DNA from: Akkermansia sp.
GTDB taxonomy: Bacteria > Verrucomicrobiota > Verrucomicrobiia > Verrucomicrobiales > Akkermansiaceae
Assembly: GCA_020047775.1 (NCBI GenBank)
Contig: JAIFNK010000016.1
Location: 1 to 18,853 of the forward strand
Direction of reading: 5' to 3'
Length of the DNA: 18,853 nucleotides
A program made the position numbers and the translations under genes. The number at the start of each line of letters is the position of its first letter. Position 1 is the stretch's first letter. Shown here piece by piece: positions 10,641-18,290 of this stretch. The notes under the pieces were generated by a model that was not told where the DNA came from, ran no database searches, and saw only the letters and a list, made by a program, of their open reading frames with translations.

Positions 10641-12677
10641 ATGAATCCCACCCAACACCTGTCCTCCGTGACCGTTCCTCCGCTCGCGGCCTTTCCAACG
10701 GAAATCGCCTCCATCGGATTCATCGTCCTTGTCCTCGTCCTCGTGGGCTTCCTCTATCTGCTGCTCACCTGCTACCGGAAGGTCGAGAAGGGCCGCGCGC
10801 TGGTCCGCACCGGGGGTACGGCGGCCAAGGTCATCCTCAACGGTGGCTTCGTGATCCCGATCATTCACCGCGCCGAGCTTATCGATATCTCCGTCAAGCG
10901 CATCGAAATCGACCGGACTGGCAAAAACGGGCTGATCTGCCTGGATAACATGCGCGCCGACATCAAGGTGGTTTTCTTCGTCCGCATCAACAACGTCGAG
11001 GCGGACATCATCAAGGTGGCGGATTCCATCGGCTGCGTCCGTGCTTCCAGCGAACCGGAAATCCGCAATCTGTTTGATGCGAAATTCTCCGAAGCGCTCA
11101 AGACCGTCGGCAAGCGTTTCCTGTTCACCCAGCTTTATGAAGACCGCGACAAGTTCCGTGAAGCGATCCTCCGCGTGATCGGCACCGACCTCAATGGCTA
11201 CGTTCTCGAAGACGCCGCTATCGACTATCTGGAACAAACTCCGGTCGAAATGCTCGATCCCGACAACATCCTTGATGCCGAGGGTATCAAGAAGATCACC
11301 GAACTCACCGCCGAGCAGGCGAAGCTTTCTAACAAGATTCAGCGCGACAAGGAGAAGGTCATCAAGCAGCAGGACGTCGAGGCCCGCGAGGCGATTCTTG
11401 AATTGGAGCGGCAGTTGAAGGAAACCGAAGCCCGCCAGCAGCGCGAGGTCGAAACCGTGCGTTCCCGCGAGGAGGCGGAGACCGCGAAGGTGGCTGAGGA
11501 GGAGCGCCGGAAATCCAACATCGCCCGCATCGCTGCGGATGAGGAGATCGCCATCGCGGACCAGAACATGCAGCGCCAGGTGCTCGTGGCCCAGCGCAAC
11601 AAGGAGCGCACCGACGGTGTTGAGATAGAGCGTGTCGAGCGCGAGCGCATGATCGAGCAAATCGAGCGCGAGCGGGTGACGCAGCTTAAACAGATCGAGT
11701 CGGAAAAAGCCGTCGAGCAACAGCGCAAGGAGATCCAGGAAGTGATCCGCGAGCGCGTCATCGTTGAGAATCTGGTAGTCGAGCAGCAACAGCGGATGAA
11801 GGATACCGAGGCCTTCGCTACCGCCGAGCGCGAGAAGAAAGTCACCGTCACCCAGGCCGAGGCCGCCGCGCAGGAGAACCTCATCCAACAGATCAAGGAG
11901 GCCGAGGCGCACAAGCAGGCCGCCCAGTTCAAGGCGGACGAGGAGGCTTACTCGATCACCACCCACGCCGAAGCGTCACGCCAGGCGGCGAAACTGGGAG
12001 CAGAGGAAAAACTCATCATGGCCGAGGCCTATCAGGCCGCGTCCGAGAAGGAGGCTGCCGGCAAGATCCTGCTGGCCGAAGCCCTCACCAAGGACTCCGC
12101 CGCCATTGGCATGGGCGAGGCCGAGGTGATCCGCGCCAAGGGAAGCGCCGACGCGGAGGCCATCCGCGAGAAGGCCGATGCGATGAAACTCTTCGAAGAA
12201 GCCGGTCAGGATCACGAGGAGTTCAAGCTCGAACTCGAAAAGGACAAGACCATCGAGCTCGCCCAGATCGACGTCCAGCGCCAGATCGCGGAGCAGCAGG
12301 CCATCGTCATCGGCGAGGCGCTCAAGCACTCGAAGATCGACATCGTCGGTGGCGAGACCGAGTTCTTCGATCGCATCACCCGCGCCATCACCACCGGCAA
12401 GGTGGTGGACCGCACCATCGGCAACAGCCAGGTGCTCGGCGACGTGAAGGACACCTTTTTCAACGGCGATCCCGAGTATTTCAAAGCTCAGGTCGGCACC
12501 TGGATCGCCGACTTCGGCGTCGCCACCGAGGATCTCAAAAACCTAAGTGTCTCAGCTCTGCTAGGAAAGCTCGTCGGCTCGGCGGACGGTGAAAAGCGCC
12601 AGCGGCTCATCGGCATGCTCGGTGCGGCGGAGAGGTTCGGGCTTGCTGATGTGAAGGCTGCTTCATTACTGAAGTAA
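10641..12677 (+). CDS. Flotillin / SPFH-domain protein, YqiK-like, 678 aa
   Basis: Flotillins are membrane-bound scaffolds that oligomerise through an SPFH (band 7) domain and a long coiled coil. Here one membrane segment (about residues 23-44, IASIGFIVLVLVLVGFLYLL) leads into an SPFH region (about 45-215: YRKVEKGRALVRTGGTAAKV, GGFVIPIIHRAELIDISVKR, LEDAAIDYLEQTPVEMLDPD). About residues 215-560 are almost uninterrupted charged coiled coil rich in Glu, Arg, Gln and Ala, including the AEA-type repeats (QAEAAAQ, IKEAEAHKQAAQFKADEEAY) typical of flotillins. A more globular tail (about 585-678, GGETEFFDRITRAITTGKVV) follows. It lies between the OB-fold gene (21 bases upstream) and, past a nuclease cassette, the giant ATPase. 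The start follows the preceding stop closely and precedes the membrane helix as expected. Confidence 0.92.
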   Translation: MNPTQHLSSVTVPPLAAFPTEIASIGFIVLVLVLVGFLYLLLTCYRKVEKGRALVRTGGTAAKVILNGGFVIPIIHRAELIDISVKRIEIDRTGKNGLICLDNMRADIKVVFFVRINNVEADIIKVADSIGCVRASSEPEIRNLFDAKFSEALKTVGKRFLFTQLYEDRDKFREAILRVIGTDLNGYVLEDAAIDYLEQTPVEMLDPDNILDAEGIKKITELTAEQAKLSNKIQRDKEKVIKQQDVEAREAILELERQLKETEARQQREVETVRSREEAETAKVAEEERRKSNIARIAADEEIAIADQNMQRQVLVAQRNKERTDGVEIERVERERMIEQIERERVTQLKQIESEKAVEQQRKEIQEVIRERVIVENLVVEQQQRMKDTEAFATAEREKKVTVTQAEAAAQENLIQQIKEAEAHKQAAQFKADEEAYSITTHAEASRQAAKLGAEEKLIMAEAYQAASEKEAAGKILLAEALTKDSAAIGMGEAEVIRAKGSADAEAIREKADAMKLFEEAGQDHEEFKLELEKDKTIELAQIDVQRQIAEQQAIVIGEALKHSKIDIVGGETEFFDRITRAITTGKVVDRTIGNSQVLGDVKDTFFNGDPEYFKAQVGTWIADFGVATEDLKNLSVSALLGKLVGSADGEKRQRLIGMLGAAERFGLADVKAASLLK

Positions 12678-12681
12678 GAGG

Positions 12682-12723
12682 GGGAACCACGGAATACTCG
12701 GAACACACGGAAAGGAAGAGGAA
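12682..12723 (+). repeat. Left arm of inverted repeat framing the GxxExxY gene (42 bases)
   Basis: It begins GGGAACCACGGAATACTCGG and ends AGGAAGAGGAA. It matches the reverse complement of 13101-13141 over its whole length, apart from one extra A in the run GGAAAGG. CGGAA recurs three times at exact 9-base spacing (12690, 12699, 12708). The arm starts 4 bases after the flotillin stop and ends on the A of the nuclease start codon, so it carries that gene's Shine-Dalgarno-like sequence (GGAAGAGG). Confidence 0.95.
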
Positions 12724-13097
12724 TGGCACTTGTTTTTGAGGCTGAAACCTATGAAATCCTAGGAGCTTGTTTTGAAGTTTATCGGGAGAAGGGCTGTGGA
12801 TTTTTGGAGGACGTTTATCAGGAATGTCTGGAGATCGAGTTCGAAATCCGTGGCATTCCCTTCGTTGTGAAACCGCCGCTCGAACTGGAATACAAGGGGC
12901 GGAAGCTCCGAAAACGATATGAACCCGACTTTTTCTGCCACGGCCAGGTGATCCTCGAAATCAAGGCGGCAAAATCCATAGATGACAGCCACCGCGCCCA
13001 AGTGATGAACTACCTCCATGCGACAAAAACCCGTATCGGTCTGCTCGTTAATTTCGGTCACTATCCGAAAGTCCAACACGAAAGATTCATCCTCTAG
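12723..13097 (+). CDS. GxxExxY protein, PD-(D/E)XK nuclease fold, 124 aa
   Basis: The GxxExxY motif is present as Gly26-Phe-Leu-Glu29-Asp-Val-Tyr32 (CGFLEDVYQECLEIE). A PD-(D/E)XK-type core follows: Asp69 in RYEPDFF, then Glu79 and Lys81 in VILEIKAA. The HRAQVMNYL helix with Gln93 and the GLLVNFG strand are typical of the family. Length (124) is normal and all the presumed catalytic residues are intact. The cellular role of GxxExxY proteins is not established; nuclease activity is inferred from the fold. Translation probably uses GGAAGAGG just before the ATG, and that sequence belongs to the left repeat arm. Codon use looks less GC-biased than in the flanking genes (for example GTTTTTGAGG, TTTTGAAGTT), which is consistent with a separate history. 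Confidence 0.9.
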   Translation: MALVFEAETYEILGACFEVYREKGCGFLEDVYQECLEIEFEIRGIPFVVKPPLELEYKGRKLRKRYEPDFFCHGQVILEIKAAKSIDDSHRAQVMNYLHATKTRIGLLVNFGHYPKVQHERFIL

Positions 13098-13100
13098 GTC

Positions 13101-13141
13101 TTCCTCTTCCTTCCGTGTGTTCCGAGTATTCCGTGGTTCCC
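13101..13141 (-). repeat. Right arm of inverted repeat framing the GxxExxY gene (41 bases)
   Basis: It reads TTCCTCTTCCTTCCGTGTGT at its start and ends GTGGTTCCC on the plus strand, the reverse complement of the left arm at 12682-12723 minus one base. It begins 4 bases after the nuclease stop codon and ends 16 bases before the ATPase start. In RNA it could pair with the left arm, closing off the nuclease ribosome-binding site. Confidence 0.95.
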
Positions 13142-13157: not shown

Positions 13158-16100
13158 ATGAGCGACTCACCCCAACAACTTGAAGGCGGCGCCTACGAGG
13201 TCATCCGTGCCCGCCTGGACCAGCACGGTGCGGTTCTGCGTGAGCGGGTGGATGCGCTCAACGCCGCGCGGCACGAGGTTTTCGGGTCGATCCCGACGGA
13301 GCTTCTCTCCACCGGTCATGTCGCCACTCCGCACAATTGCATTCCGCGCGATTTGGTGAGCCTCGGCGACGGGATCTATCTGCTGGGTTACAACATCCAG
13401 TTCGGACTGAAGCAGACCACCGAGGTCGCCGACGTCTTCGCGGTCTGCCGCCTGGACGAGCAGCGGAATTTTCATCCGGTCGCCCTCGAGGTGGTTCTGG
13501 GAGACGCGGTTTTCAATGAGGATTTCCAAGCCTTGTTCCGCTACTATCGGAATACGGTTTTCGTGAAGTTCATGCTCATCGGTCCGCATCTCCACATGAA
13601 GATGCGGATCGGAAAATCCGAGGATGATTTCAAGACCTTCAAGTGGCGGATCAAGGGTGACGGGACGCTCGAATATTTGGGAAACCGCTCCGAGCACGAG
13701 TGTCGTTATCCCGAACAGGTCGAGTTCCAATGGAAGCGTGCCCACCGCGACATGCACCGCGCGGGCGAGCATCCGCACGTCTCGGTGGAGGACCGCGTCT
13801 TCGTGGAAACCATCGGCGGCGACCTGACGATCAAGGTGGAGGACAACACCGCGAGCGGGCAGGGAATCTACTCGGAACCGGTGGCGGATCCGGACCAGAC
13901 GCTCGACGATGCGGAGATCCACTATGCCATTCTCGGGCCGCTGGTGATTCTGCGGATTCTGCCGTATCGTGAGACGACGCACCGGCACTTGGTTTATAAC
14001 GAAAAGACCCGCGAGGTGCATCGCCTCGATGGCATCGGCCAGTCCTGTGTGTTGCTGCCCGGAGACCAGGGGATTCTGTTCGCCAACGGCTACATGCTGG
14101 CGACCGGCGCGGTGAAAACCTACGAGACCGGCAAGTCGGGCCTGCATTTCGAGCGGCGGATCGCGGCCGGAAATGGCGAGGACACGTTGTTTGTTTTCTA
14201 TCAACGAAACTCCGGGCATTACGTCCTCTTCTCCTACAACGTCATCGCGCAGAGCGTCGAGACGCCGGTCGTCTGTAATGGCTTCGCGCTCGATCCGGAC
14301 GGGCGGATGGTGTTGTTCCAGGCACCGGAGCAACCTCAAAAGCACCACGCGCTGCAAGTCTGGCGCACACCCTACGTCGCCGACTCCAACACCGCGGTGC
14401 CTGCGGAAAAACGCGAGTCGCTGCTGTTCAAGATCGGCAATTCCGCGCTGGTCCGCGGCATGGCGGAGGCCCGCGAGATCCTCATATTGTTAGGCAAGGG
14501 TGATACCTACGCGGACGTCTATCTGGAACTCGTGCGCCGCAGCCGCGAGGTGCTCGACGGTTATTTCTGGCTGAAGGAAAAGGAAGCCTGCCAGTTGTCG
14601 GAACCGCTGGAAGCGATCCACGCCGCGGCGAATGCGGCGATTGATGAGTTCGACAAGGTGGTGCGGTTGCGCCAGGCGACCGCCGCTCGGACCGAAGAGG
14701 TGCGCGCCGCCACCGAGGCGCTTCTCAAGACCGTGCGACTCAGTGCGCCGGACGACATCCGCGGATTCGTCCAGCATCTGGCGGACCTCCGCCTGCGCCG
14801 GGGGGAAATCATCGGTTTGCGCGAGTTGAGATATGCGGATGGCGTGCTGATCGATGATCTCGACCAGCGCGTGGCTGCGGCTTCGGACGAGGTTTCGGCA
14901 AAGACGGTGGATTTCCTGCTGCGCGAGGGAGCGCTGGAACCTTATCGCCTGGCCATCGAATCGCAGCGCGCGTCGCTTGCCGCGATTTCCAAGACCGCCG
15001 AGGCCGATGCCACGGCGAAGGGGCTTGATGCGGCGGGGGCCGAGCTGGAGTTGCTGATTGAAATCGTCAGCAATCTTCGGATCGAAGACGCCACTCAGAC
15101 GACCGCGATCATCGAGAGCATTTCCGCGCTGTATGCCACGCTCAACGGGATCCGGGCTGAGTTGAAATCCAAACGGCGTGATCTCGCCCGCGTCGAGGGG
15201 GTCGCGCAGTTCAGCGCGCAGATCAAGCTGCTAGGCCAGGCGGTGGTGAACTTCCTCGACCTCTGCGACACTCCCGACAAGTGCGGCGAATACCTGACCA
15301 AGGTGATGGTGCAGGTGGAGGAACTTGAAGGGCGATTCGCCGAGTTCGATGAATACATCGAGGAGCTCTCCCGCAAGCGCGAGGAGATTTACGAGGCGTT
15401 CGAAGGCCGCAAGCAGGCGCTCGTCGAGCAGCGGAACCGCCGTGCGGGAAACCTCCTGAAGTCCGCGGAACGGATTCTAGCAGGACTCGCGCACCGCGTC
15501 GCCTCGCTGGACGACATCAACGCGATCAACGGATATTTCGCCGGGGATCTGATGGTTTCAAAACTCCGCGACATCATCGGCGAGTTGCGGAACATCGACG
15601 ATACCGTCAAATCCGACGATCTTCAAACGCGGCTCAAGACCTTGCAGGACGACGCCGTCCGCCAGCTCAAGGATCGCAAGGAGCTGTTCGCCGACGGTGG
15701 AAATTCGTTGAAGTTCGGCAGGCACAGTTTCTCGGTGAATACGCAGGAGCTGGAACTTTCCATCGTGCCACACGAAGGGACGATGTGTTTCCATCTCTCC
15801 GGCACGGCGTTTTTCGAGCCAGTGGAAAGCGAGGAGTTCCTGGCCACCCGCGATGTGTGGGAGCAACAGGTGATCAGCGAGAACACCCGCGTCTATCGGG
15901 CGGAGTGGCTTGCCTGGCAGATGCTGGAGCAGGGCGTGGTCCAAGGGGAGCCGACGCTCGCGGACGTTCATGAATTCATGGCTCCACGCTATGCGGAAGG
16001 TTACACCAAGGGAGTGCATGACGAGGACGCGCTGCGGATTCTCGGCGCGATCCTGCCGGTGCACCGGGCGCTCGGACTGCTGCGCACCGGGCCTCGGGTG

Positions 16101-18290
16101 AGGTCGCTTGCCTTGTTGTTCTGGGAGATCCATCGCGTCTCGGACGAGGGCAGGCAGTTAGGTTTGCTGGTCGCTGCCCATGGGGCGATGCGCCGGTTTT
16201 TCCAAGCGCCTTCCACGGAGGTTCATCCGCTGCGTTCCACGCTGGAGCGGGCGTTGATGGAGTTTGTGAAAAATTCCCGTGCCGCGGCTTTGTTGGTCGC
16301 GATGAGCGACTCCAACGCGGATGCGATGGCGGGCGACGCGGCGGCCTATCTCTTCGAGCAACTCGCGTCCGGCGGACCGATGCTCGCCTCCGCCGAGGCC
16401 GCGGCGTGGACGGCGGATTTCAAACTGGCGCTTGGCACTCGCGGTGCTGCCAGTGAATTCGCGAAGTCCATCGAACCACTCGCCAATGATCCGGAGCAAC
16501 GGTTTCTCGTGCTTTTCGACTGGATGAGCGGTTATCTCCGCACCACGGATCCGCTGGAATCGAGTCCGTACCGCACACCGGTGCCCGCATGGCTCGCCGA
16601 GTCCGCCGCCCACTGGCTGCGTGGAGGAATCGAGCAGTTGGGCGTGGTGGAAACCTCCAGTTCGATCCGTGTCGAGGGACTGCGCGGCCAGCACGCCGTC
16701 ATCGCCGACGGCGGGATTTATGAAACCGACTATCAGGCGGTCCGCAACCGCCTCACGCGGTTCGCCCGTCATGATGTCCCGGCATTCGAGGCCAGTGCGC
16801 GGCTCAAGCAGCGTTTGATCGAAAACCGTCGCGCGCAGATCCGCTTGGACGAGTTCAAGGCCAAGGTCATGAGCTCCTTCGTCCGCAACCGGCTCATCAA
16901 CGACGTCTATCTGCCGATCATCGGTGAGAACCTCGCCAAGCAGATCGGCACCGTCGGTAGTGACACGCGCACCGACCGATCGGGTCTGTTGTTGCTTGTT
17001 TCGCCGCCCGGTTACGGCAAGACGACAATCATGGAATACGTGGCGAACCGGCTTGGACTGACGTTCATGAAGATCAACGGTCCGGCGCTCGGCCACGGCG
17101 TGGTTTCGCTGGATCCCACCGAAGCGCCGAATCTATCCGCTCGCGAGGAAGTGGATAAACTCAACCTCGCGCTGGAAATGGGCGACAACGTGATGATCTA
17201 CGTGGACGACATCCAGCACACGAATCCGGAGTTCCTCCAGCGCTTCATCAGCCTGTGCGACGCCCAGCGGAAGATGGAAGGCGTCTGGCGCGGCAAGGCC
17301 CGGACCTACGATTTGCGGGGGAAAAAGGTCGCAGTGGTCATGGCGGGCAACCCCTACACCGAGGGCGGGACCCAATTCAAGATTCCCGACATGTTAGCCA
17401 ACCGCGCCGACACGTATAACCTCGGCGACATCCTCGGCGGGCATCTCGACGCGTTCAAGGCGAGTTACATCGAGAACTGCCTGACTGCGAATCCGGTGCT
17501 CGCGCGTCTGGCGAGCAAGCATCAGGAGGATGTTTACGCGGTGATGCGCATCGCGGAAACCGGCAGTCACGAGGGAGTGGATTTCAAGGGCAACCACGCC
17601 TCGGCGGAGATTGAGGAAATGGTCGCCGTCGTCCGCCATCTGTTTGAAATCCGCGACACCATCCTGCGGGTGAACCAGGAATACATCTGCAGCGCCGCGC
17701 AGGAGGATGCCTATCGGACCGAGCCGCCGTTCAAGCTCCAGGGTTCCTATCGGAACATGAGTCGCATCGCCGTGAAGGTGATGCCGCTGATGACCCGCGA
17801 GGAAATCCGCGGGTTGATCCTGGATCACTATCGAAACGAATCGCAGACGCTGACACAGGGAGCGGAGGCGAATTTGCTCAAGTTCAAGGAATTCGAAGGC
17901 ATCGCCAACGAGCAGGAAAAAGCGCGCTGGGCGGACATCAAGAAGGAGTTCATGAAGCGGCGTCTGCTAGGTGGTGTCGGCGAAGAGGATCCGGTCGGCC
18001 GGGTGGTCGCACAGCTTTCCGGATTCCAGGACGGGCTGGATGCCATCAAGTCGATCATCGCGGAAACCGGGCGTGAGCACGCGAAGCCACAGACTCTGTC
18101 CGAGACCACGGTGGCCCACCTTCGCGAGATCATCCAGGGCCTCCGGGCGGTGCCGGTGGAGGTGGATATCAAGGTCGTGCCAGTGCAGGAGTCCGACGGG
18201 CCGATCCAGCGCATCGACCGCAGCGGGACTGCCCCCCTGGAGCTCAAGCCGGAGGTGCGCCAGGGAGATCTGGATGCCGGGGCTCCATGA
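13158..18290 (+). CDS. Giant AAA ATPase of the 'DNA repair ATPase' (DUF3686-like) type, 1710 aa
   Basis: Residues about 60-430 are beta-rich with recurring strand-turn units (DGIYLLGYNIQFGLK, ILGPLVILRILPYRE, DGIGQSCVLLPGDQGILFAN, NGFALDPDGRMVLFQ) and look propeller-like. About 430-845 are mainly helical coiled coil (VEELEGRFAEFDEYIEELSR). A short beta segment (about 850-900) and a helical region (905-1215) follow. The AAA core spans about 1215-1500: Walker A SPPGYGKTT (1282-1290, Lys1288), Walker B VMIYVDDIQ (Asp1350, Asp1351), sensor-1-like Asn1398 in MAGNPYT, possible Arg finger Arg1416 in ANRADT and sensor-2-like Arg1532 in GSYRNM. No nuclease motif or membrane helix is visible. Databases label such proteins DNA repair ATPase, but I know of no firm demonstration. 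It ends the flotillin cluster, which suggests work at the membrane with those partners. Confidence 0.88.
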   Translation: MSDSPQQLEGGAYEVIRARLDQHGAVLRERVDALNAARHEVFGSIPTELLSTGHVATPHNCIPRDLVSLGDGIYLLGYNIQFGLKQTTEVADVFAVCRLDEQRNFHPVALEVVLGDAVFNEDFQALFRYYRNTVFVKFMLIGPHLHMKMRIGKSEDDFKTFKWRIKGDGTLEYLGNRSEHECRYPEQVEFQWKRAHRDMHRAGEHPHVSVEDRVFVETIGGDLTIKVEDNTASGQGIYSEPVADPDQTLDDAEIHYAILGPLVILRILPYRETTHRHLVYNEKTREVHRLDGIGQSCVLLPGDQGILFANGYMLATGAVKTYETGKSGLHFERRIAAGNGEDTLFVFYQRNSGHYVLFSYNVIAQSVETPVVCNGFALDPDGRMVLFQAPEQPQKHHALQVWRTPYVADSNTAVPAEKRESLLFKIGNSALVRGMAEAREILILLGKGDTYADVYLELVRRSREVLDGYFWLKEKEACQLSEPLEAIHAAANAAIDEFDKVVRLRQATAARTEEVRAATEALLKTVRLSAPDDIRGFVQHLADLRLRRGEIIGLRELRYADGVLIDDLDQRVAAASDEVSAKTVDFLLREGALEPYRLAIESQRASLAAISKTAEADATAKGLDAAGAELELLIEIVSNLRIEDATQTTAIIESISALYATLNGIRAELKSKRRDLARVEGVAQFSAQIKLLGQAVVNFLDLCDTPDKCGEYLTKVMVQVEELEGRFAEFDEYIEELSRKREEIYEAFEGRKQALVEQRNRRAGNLLKSAERILAGLAHRVASLDDINAINGYFAGDLMVSKLRDIIGELRNIDDTVKSDDLQTRLKTLQDDAVRQLKDRKELFADGGNSLKFGRHSFSVNTQELELSIVPHEGTMCFHLSGTAFFEPVESEEFLATRDVWEQQVISENTRVYRAEWLAWQMLEQGVVQGEPTLADVHEFMAPRYAEGYTKGVHDEDALRILGAILPVHRALGLLRTGPRVRSLALLFWEIHRVSDEGRQLGLLVAAHGAMRRFFQAPSTEVHPLRSTLERALMEFVKNSRAAALLVAMSDSNADAMAGDAAAYLFEQLASGGPMLASAEAAAWTADFKLALGTRGAASEFAKSIEPLANDPEQRFLVLFDWMSGYLRTTDPLESSPYRTPVPAWLAESAAHWLRGGIEQLGVVETSSSIRVEGLRGQHAVIADGGIYETDYQAVRNRLTRFARHDVPAFEASARLKQRLIENRRAQIRLDEFKAKVMSSFVRNRLINDVYLPIIGENLAKQIGTVGSDTRTDRSGLLLLVSPPGYGKTTIMEYVANRLGLTFMKINGPALGHGVVSLDPTEAPNLSAREEVDKLNLALEMGDNVMIYVDDIQHTNPEFLQRFISLCDAQRKMEGVWRGKARTYDLRGKKVAVVMAGNPYTEGGTQFKIPDMLANRADTYNLGDILGGHLDAFKASYIENCLTANPVLARLASKHQEDVYAVMRIAETGSHEGVDFKGNHASAEIEEMVAVVRHLFEIRDTILRVNQEYICSAAQEDAYRTEPPFKLQGSYRNMSRIAVKVMPLMTREEIRGLILDHYRNESQTLTQGAEANLLKFKEFEGIANEQEKARWADIKKEFMKRRLLGGVGEEDPVGRVVAQLSGFQDGLDAIKSIIAETGREHAKPQTLSETTVAHLREIIQGLRAVPVEVDIKVVPVQESDGPIQRIDRSGTAPLELKPEVRQGDLDAGAP

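What the first reader, a model, noticed from the sequence alone, without database searches (positions are those of the whole stretch)
12682..13141. A GxxExxY nuclease gene exactly framed by a near-perfect 42/41-base inverted repeat
The arms at 12682-12723 and 13101-13141 match as reverse complements with a single one-base indel, and the gene fills the space between them with 0 and 3 bases to spare. Arms this long and this similar are either recent or under selection. A nuclease-fold gene in such a frame looks like a minimal mobile or homing-type unit without a transposase. I am not aware of a described mechanism for GxxExxY mobility.
Basis: partly seen in the sequence, partly recalled or inferred. 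Interest (0 to 1): 0.8.

Follow-up and report, generated by a model that had tools for sequence, protein, structure and literature searches.

The report
Nuclease genes framed by repeat arrays
A small nuclease-like gene sits exactly between two mirror-image copies of a short repeat array, and the same arrangement, with a repeat sequence that follows the type of nuclease, recurs around this gene family in many bacterial groups, which suggests a kind of repeat-associated genetic element that I could not find described.

Summary
In the window a 124-aa GxxExxY protein (TIGR04256; minimal RecB/Cas4-like PD-(D/E)XK fold, nuclease residues kept) lies between inverted arms of 42 and 41 nt, each three 9-nt units plus an inner tail. 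The same test finds matching arms at 103 of 119 testable GxxExxY loci of this order (controls 11 of 889) and at 63 of 80 testable loci from many phyla (controls 29 of 989). Arm sequence follows protein subfamily rather than host genome (116-row tree: 9 motif changes, shuffled mean 34.7). Gene-less copies, often inverted pairs, are dispersed. The window's site is filled in G000 and G020; G021, G027 and G009 lack the gene there. At pheS|pheT, species carry nothing, short gene-less stretches, one of two GxxExxY subfamilies, or a four-helix-bundle (S23) gene. The window's unit is not recent: G020 shares it at dS about 1.6, dN/dS about 0.03. Best reading: a RAYT/REPIN-like repeat-associated system built on a PD-(D/E)XK protein instead of a Y1 transposase. 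Recognition of the arms by the protein and the chemistry of movement are inferred, not shown.

The parts
12682..12723 (+). left arm (42 nt): three 9-nt units at 12686-12694, 12695-12703, 12704-12712, then an AGGAAGAGGAA tail that holds a Shine-Dalgarno-like stretch (by eye)
12723..13097 (+). GxxExxY gene, 124 aa, PD-(D/E)XK nuclease fold; E29, D69, K81, Y97, N110 invariant in 95 aligned sequences, Q93 in 90% or more
13101..13141 (-). right arm (41 nt), inverted copy of the left arm; units at 13111-13137
10641..12677 (+). upstream neighbour, 678-aa flotillin-like protein (NCBIfam match far below cut-off, 19 of 700 bits); its stop codon ends 4 nt before the left arm
13158..18290 (+). downstream neighbour, 1710-aa protein with DUF3686, DUF7902 and AAA domains; with the upstream gene it was used for the empty-site test

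Best explanation
The unit is one copy of a widespread repeat-associated element. A small gene for a PD-(D/E)XK protein, with no room for a promoter of its own, is framed by two inverted arrays of 8-10-nt units, lies close behind the stop codon of an upstream gene and is read in its neighbours' direction. Each protein subfamily has its own kind of array. The protein, perhaps as an oligomer, recognises the units and nicks or cleaves the inverted pair (as cruciform, hairpin or duplex); repair or copying then keeps the two arms alike and seeds gene-less copies elsewhere. The gene-carrying copy moves rarely, taking its arms along, and is otherwise inherited in place. The habit is that of RAYT genes with their REPs. 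Shown: architecture, association of motif with subfamily, dispersed copies, sites without the unit, low dN/dS, conserved nuclease residues. Inferred: recognition of the arms by the protein, cleavage, and its role in dispersal.
For: Arms at 103 of 119 loci against 11 of 889 controls at score 14, and 91 of 119 against 1 of 889 at 18 (loci at shared sites are not independent). 63 of 80 against 29 of 989 at 14, and 55 of 80 against 3 of 989 at 18, in named genomes of many phyla, an archaeal MAG and one IMG/VR contig. Motif follows protein: Mantel rho 0.37 for 7679 between-genome pairs under 60% identity, 500 permutations at most 0.135, while only 2 of 57 same-genome pairs have similar arms. Tree of 116 rows: 9 motif changes against 34.7 shuffled, 0 of 200 as low, 78 of 80 rows of the CRCNN[A/C]G class on one side of a 98/99 branch. 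Arms follow the gene where this can be seen: G020's gene between the two parts of metH (L038) groups with pheS|pheT-site genes (97/88) and has CGCCAAG arms like theirs. Gene-less copies. G000, G009 and G020 carry 8, 8 and 18 copies of the window's arm, the nearby G021 and G027 none; four other genomes have 1-3. Sites without the unit. dN/dS 0.023-0.056 in the six of 14 comparisons that could be calculated, several near saturation. No excess of G-U-compatible arm differences, 171 against 200, p=0.15, as expected for action on DNA. Model pLDDT 95.8; best Foldseek match SSO0001 (4ic1), then lambda exonuclease.
Against: No biochemistry: binding and cleavage are untested. No target-site duplication or exact end was established. 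16 of 119 loci have no arms at score 14, among them G000's C83 gene. Window-type arm copies occur without a cognate gene among those examined in G009 (8 copies, both of its genes examined), G022 (3 copies, 4 of 8 genes examined), G050 (3, 1 of 3) and G001 (1, 1 of 6); for G009 a past loss would explain it. G018 has 54 CGCCAAG copies although none of its three genes examined (of 5) has such arms. Some gene-less pairs mix motif classes. Arm homogenisation beyond descent is clear at one site only. An unrelated family (S23) has the same architecture, so the nuclease chemistry cannot be what the architecture needs.
Confidence: 0.55

Rival explanations
1. IVS-like RNA element. The gene is transcribed by read-through from the host operon; the two arms pair in the mRNA into a long stem that RNase III cuts, so that the insert is removed from or insulated in the transcript. 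The unit is tolerated between essential genes for that reason, as the S23-coding intervening sequence is in 23S rRNA.
For: No room for a promoter between arm and start codon. Neighbours run in the gene's direction: 20 ++ against 1 -- among the confident cases, 79 unclear. S23 genes have the same frame (28 of 30, controls 0 of 216) and occur at the pheS|pheT site; the rRNA version is cut by RNase III (PMC4990558, abstract and passages).
Against: RNA pairing should favour differences that keep G-U pairs in the sense strand: 76 against 82 in 73 loci, 171 against 200 in 146 loci, no excess. It does not explain why the motif tracks the protein subfamily, nor the gene-less copies, four of seven of which in G020 seem to lie between convergent genes, on weak strand calls.
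Confidence: 0.2
2. Passenger model. The arrays are moved by another enzyme, such as the RAYT-like Y1 transposases common in these genomes, and GxxExxY and S23 genes are cargo.
For: Y1_Tnp is found in 57 of 59 genomes, often in many copies. Two unrelated genes use the same architecture.
Against: In the same kind of test 17 of 20 Y1_Tnp genes are framed by repeats of their own, which look like palindromic REPs and unlike the arrays (by eye). Four array arms folded have little or no structure of their own. The array motif is tied to GxxExxY subfamily. G038 and G057 have no Y1_Tnp match, but G057 has no GxxExxY and the one gene of G038 was not examined, so this does not decide.
Confidence: 0.1
3. 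Immobile regulatory unit. The arms are binding sites through which the GxxExxY protein controls its own or the operon's expression; presence and absence reflect ordinary gain and loss of a useful gene.
For: Low dN/dS and long residence at one site; Shine-Dalgarno-like stretch inside the arm (by eye); units spaced near one helical turn.
Against: Genes with arms occur at several unrelated sites and alternate with other contents at one site; gene-less copies are dispersed; nuclease residues are conserved.
Confidence: 0.12

Closest known systems
RAYT / REPIN (REP-associated tyrosine transposases and inverted REP doublets)
   Same: Small gene flanked by two inverted extragenic repeats; repeats dispersed in the genome, largely as inverted pairs; several types per genome, each with its own repeat; genes keep their place while flanking repeats change and still match (PMC2817692 and PMC3116915, search listing and passages).
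   Different: RAYTs are Y1 transposases, REPs are palindromic, and PMC2817692 reports fast substitution in rayt genes; here a PD-(D/E)XK protein with low dN/dS and tandem 8-10-nt units. Both kinds of system occur in these genomes.
S23-coding intervening sequence of 23S rRNA (Coxiella; Leptospira), four-helix-bundle family TIGR02436
   Same: Small ORF in an element called selfish, with inverted repeats and tandem heptamers before the start codon (PMC4990558, abstract and passages). TIGR02436 genes in this order have the same frame and occur at the same pheS|pheT site as GxxExxY.
   Different: Unrelated protein family and another motif kind; the described IVS lies in rRNA, the GxxExxY units whose neighbours were named here lie between protein genes.
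PD-(D/E)XK nucleases of the RecB/Cas4/lambda-exonuclease type
   Same: Fold, and residues E, D, K, Q and Y; that QxxxY marks the RecB/Cas4 group is recalled.
   Different: Single 124-aa domain; Cas4 and RecB/AddAB act in larger complexes (recalled). Three neighbouring proteins searched are not helicase or Cas proteins by family.

Membership tests
GxxExxY (TIGR04256) / PDDEXK_3 (PF13366) | profile match above curated cut-off | tested here: met
   134.1 bits against 35; 134.2 against 22
GxxExxY (TIGR04256) / PDDEXK_3 (PF13366) | nuclease residues and fold | tested here: met
   E29 D69 K81 Y97 invariant in 95 sequences; model pLDDT 95.8, Foldseek best 4ic1 E 9.7e-5; activity not tested
RAYT/REP system | gene flanked by two inverted extragenic repeats | tested here: met
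   for the window; 103 of 119 loci
RAYT/REP system | same repeats dispersed in the genome, largely as inverted pairs | tested here: met
   dispersal: 8 sites in G000, 18 in G020, reversed-pattern control 0. Pairs: 7 of 15 G020 loci read show a second, inverted copy of the same pattern with up to 7 mismatches; not counted over whole genomes
RAYT/REP system | Y1 (HUH) transposase domain, PF01797 | tested here: not met
   only PF13366 at E 0.001 or better
RAYT/REP system | each repeat is itself an imperfect palindrome | tested here: not met
   four arms folded as DNA: 0, -2.7, 0, -4.5 kcal/mol, z 1.4, -1.6, 0.4, -0.8 against shuffles
S23 intervening sequence | S23 / four-helix-bundle ORF | tested here: not met
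   the ORF is PDDEXK_3 / TIGR04256 only
S23 intervening sequence | located in a 23S rRNA gene | tested here: not met
   lies between two protein genes; no Rfam match in the window
S23 intervening sequence | RNase III excision of the insert from RNA | not testable with these tools
   the indirect G-U test shows no RNA-pairing signal
Insertion sequence / MITE | DDE or other known transposase in the element | tested here: not met
   the ORF between the arms matches PDDEXK_3 only; a MITE needs none of its own
Insertion sequence / MITE | target-site duplication | tested here: inconclusive
   filled and empty sites are too diverged to read exact ends
Homing endonuclease unit | invades the allelic empty site by cutting it | not testable with these tools
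   recurrent sites such as pheS|pheT would fit but also hold other genes

The most novel reading that the evidence does not exclude
GxxExxY proteins and their arrays are an independent class of repeat-propagating element, found in bacteria and at least one archaeal MAG, in which a single-domain PD-(D/E)XK nuclease without any transposase reads a subfamily-specific tandem code in inverted arrays and, by nicking and repair, copies these arrays and now and then its own gene into gene junctions. The four-helix-bundle S23 units would be a second family of the same architecture, so that RAYT/REPIN is one of at least three parallel solutions.
Probability: 0.35. Interest if true: 0.9.

Novelty: new variant of a known kind. 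Interest (0 to 1): 0.78.

Why it matters
It would give a context and a testable substrate to a very common protein family named only for a motif, found at E 0.001 or better in 52 of 59 genomes of this order. It offers a likely source for short extragenic repeats in the groups sampled, a natural set of matched nuclease-DNA pairs from which a recognition code could be learned, and a frame that links the long-known S23 intervening sequence with RAYT/REPINs. In the held library the name GxxExxY occurs in two papers, both in passing, and six array sequences that I searched for occur in none.

Tried and rejected
Recent insertion: rejected for the window's unit because G020 has it at the same site with dS about 1.6.

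RNA stem as the selected feature: the G-U test gives no support; kept as a rival. RAYT as the mover: those genes have repeats of their own; kept as a rival.

Arm homogenisation (mean local scores within an element against between species on the same side): metH 33.3 against 18.3, pheS|pheT 26.5 against 23.2, ACAGG-type at pheS|pheT 28.3 against 22.3, hisS|aspS 33.8 against 34.7, and for closer relatives the reverse (window site 32.0 against 37.2; L105 group 29.3 against 35.8; L115 pair 22.2 against 42.0). The groups were set by hand and may hold independent insertions; L078 and L088 were put in the metH group without a site check, L070 on one flank only. The distance comparison is biased because arms are cut out by matching each other.

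Sites without the unit: of eight gene-less G020 loci only L303 gave hits across the junction (G044, G022, G038, G043); for the other seven the listed hits were one-sided (list cut off). Two early survey scripts set gene starts wrongly and were replaced. Neighbour strands by longest ORF (52 ++, 16 -+, 6 +-, 5 --, 5 undetermined) contain wrong calls; the codon-based version is strict and leaves 79 of 100 unclear.

Full report
1. The observation. The window (contig C208 of a 57%-complete MAG, 3.06 Mb) holds an inverted repeat with arms at 12682-12723 and 13101-13141. The outer 31 nt are perfectly complementary and stand above every other inverted repeat listed for the window. With the 1-nt indel the arms are 42 and 41 nt. 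The ORF 12723-13097 fills the space and matches TIGR04256 and PF13366. Each arm is an array: ACCACGGAA, TACTCGGAA, CACACGGAA, then a purine-rich tail next to the gene.

2. Where the host lies. One relative's locus (G051, L064) has the same arms and contig length as JAUIAH010000009.1, 'Verrucomicrobiia bacterium' (L190), so the order belongs to the Verrucomicrobiota.

3. It is general. I aligned 300 nt upstream with the reverse complement of 300 nt downstream for the GxxExxY genes I held from this order: 121 loci (the own genome's four, two found beside the DUF3686 gene, and 115 from the listing, which was itself cut off). 119 could be tested: 103 reach score 14 and 91 reach 18; shifted control windows reach these in 11 and 1 of 889. 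Some loci are orthologues at one site, so they are not all independent. Of these 81, 80 could be tested: 63 reach 14 (controls 29 of 989), 55 reach 18 (controls 3 of 989). Arms are arrays of 8-10-nt units that differ between loci but match within a locus.

4. The motif follows the protein. For 128 loci at score 18 or more, arm similarity between genomes rises with protein identity (mean local score about 6 below 40% identity, 13.1 at 60-75%, 23.8 above 75%); for 7679 pairs under 60% identity rho is 0.37, 500 permutations at most 0.135. Of 57 pairs within one genome, 2 have similar arms. I labelled the arms of 146 loci by unit type (15 'mixed' and 3 short proteins left out, 12 near-copies dropped) and built a tree of 116 proteins: 9 label changes, shuffled mean 34.7, none of 200 as low. 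The CRCNN[A/C]G type (80 rows, most of the non-Verrucomicrobial ones fetched with that subfamily's pattern) has 78 rows on one side of a 98/99 branch; the ACA[AGT]GATT and CACTGA types are each one side of a supported branch; the CRCNGAT and CRCNAAT types need 5 and 3 changes.

5. Copies without the gene. The window's arm pattern (27 nt, up to 3 mismatches) has 8 sites in the own genome, 6 outside this unit. In 59 genomes, own included, 7 have any: G000 8, G009 8, G020 18, G022 3, G050 3, G028 2, G001 1; the reversed pattern has none. G028's two lie just before a GxxExxY gene cut by its contig end. A CGCCAAG pattern is found in 24 of 59, control none. Of 15 G020 loci read, 7 show an inverted pair with spacers of 52-109 nt, most of them different from one another; others are single or paired with an array of another class. 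G000 has similar pairs. This is how REPINs look.

6. Sites without the unit. Of 23 loci with the DUF3686 gene, a GxxExxY gene lies beside it in G000, G020 (92% identical protein) and G044 (52%); tblastn finds none in the other 20. G021 has 12 nt between stop and start codon where G000 has the unit; G027 has a short spacer; G009 has another ORF. In the tree of the two neighbours G000 and G009 are sisters (98/97), then G020 (92/86), G021, G027. The simplest history is a gain before G000, G009 and G020 parted and a loss in G009, which kept 8 copies; G021 and G027 have none. G044 has a unit with different but mutually matching arms, gained apart or long diverged. A gene-less copy of G020 (L303) has sites without it in G044 and G022, read by alignment, and in G038 and G043 by hit coordinates.

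7. One site, many tenants. Family searches name the flanks pheS|pheT, hisS|aspS (above cut-off) and two ORFs that together cover metH (one locus each). Between pheS and pheT, 22 sequences from 22 genomes among the loci in hand (not a random sample) show: only a few bases in G016 and G001; short gene-less stretches in G020, G006, G011, G007, G018, G017; GxxExxY of the CRCNN[A/C]G kind in nine, of which G021 has lost the right arm (score 7.5) and G032 has an in-frame stop; GxxExxY with ACAGGATT arms in G053, G043, G047; and a four-helix-bundle gene in G009 and G015. The metH and hisS|aspS sites vary likewise, by hit coordinates. G020's gene at the metH site groups with pheS|pheT genes and carries CGCCAAG arms, one case of arms going with the gene and not the site.

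8. Not recent, and under selection. Between G000 and G020 the gene has dS about 1.59 and dN/dS 0.026; five other pairs give 0.023-0.056; of 14 pairs tried the other eight were saturated, nearly identical or broken, and dS above 1 is rough. The left-arm core is identical over 27 nt in G000 and G020, the right one differs at 2.

10. Two other small-gene systems in the same genomes. TIGR02436 (S23) genes: 28 of 30 framed by inverted arrays of another motif kind, controls 0 of 216. Y1_Tnp genes: 17 of 20 framed at score 14, controls 0 of 36, by repeats that look like palindromic REPs (slightly longer downstream window); this is also a positive control for the test.

11. DNA or RNA. If the arms mattered as an RNA stem, differences that keep G-U pairs in the sense strand should prevail; they do not (76 against 82; 171 against 200, p=0.15). 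Yet the gene has no room for a promoter and lies along the direction of its neighbours (20 ++, 1 --, 79 unclear; S23 14 ++, 13 unclear), just behind the upstream stop codon (median -0.5 nt from stop to arm, n 20). Expression by read-through is therefore likely, and an IVS-like RNA role is not excluded.

12. Known or new. RAYT/REP anatomy is close except for the enzyme, the palindromic repeat and the pace of gene change (PMC2817692, PMC3116915; listing and passages). The S23 intervening sequence of Coxiella has inverted repeats and tandem heptamers before its ORF (PMC4990558; abstract and passages). For GxxExxY the held library has two passing mentions; searches with array sequences and related words found nothing on it (listings only). 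Most subscription papers are not held, so absence from print is not proven.

13. Verdict. A repeat-associated element class of RAYT/REPIN-like habit built on a PD-(D/E)XK protein, widespread and, as far as I could search, undescribed. The architecture and its tie to protein subfamily are well supported; what the protein does to its arms is the open, now testable, question.

Noticed in passing
L126-L155: Four-helix-bundle (TIGR02436/S23) genes of the order are framed by inverted arrays of another motif kind, 28 of 30, and occur at one insertion site used by GxxExxY units.
   Followed up: partly
L380-L399: Y1_Tnp genes are abundant (57 of 59 genomes) and 17 of 20 examined are framed by repeats that look like palindromic REPs.
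   Followed up: partly
L038 and L350, metH site: The unit lies between two ORFs that cover metH profile positions 84-322 and 317-768 (L038), so methionine synthase is encoded in two parts around it; whether relatives without the unit have one ORF was not checked.
   Followed up: no
L291, L297, L300, L303 and L009: By eye, gene-less copies combine or nest arms of different motif classes, for example CGCCAAG with ACGGA, or ACGGA with GATTCGT, like mosaic elements.
   Followed up: no
L206:4800-6600 and L071:1900-2700: Arrays lie at or beside ORFs that look like type I restriction specificity subunits (HsdS, by eye).
   Followed up: no
L014 (G009), between flotillin-like and DUF3686 genes: At the place of the window's unit G009 has a different short ORF starting MKTRIGTYAICLSAF, lipoprotein-like by eye.
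   Followed up: no
G022:C31:52295-52321 and G022:C38:64-90: Window-type arm copies lie at contig ends, which suggests that such repeats break assemblies and that copy numbers in draft genomes are underestimates.
   Followed up: no
L236 (IMG/VR contig): A GxxExxY gene with matching arrays (score 24) on a contig classed as viral.
   Followed up: no
window 13158-18290: 1710-aa protein with DUF3686, DUF7902 and an AAA domain next to a flotillin-like protein; the pair recurs in relatives, role unknown.
   Followed up: no
L111, L122, L311: Several array copies crowd one region beside a GxxExxY gene.
   Followed up: no
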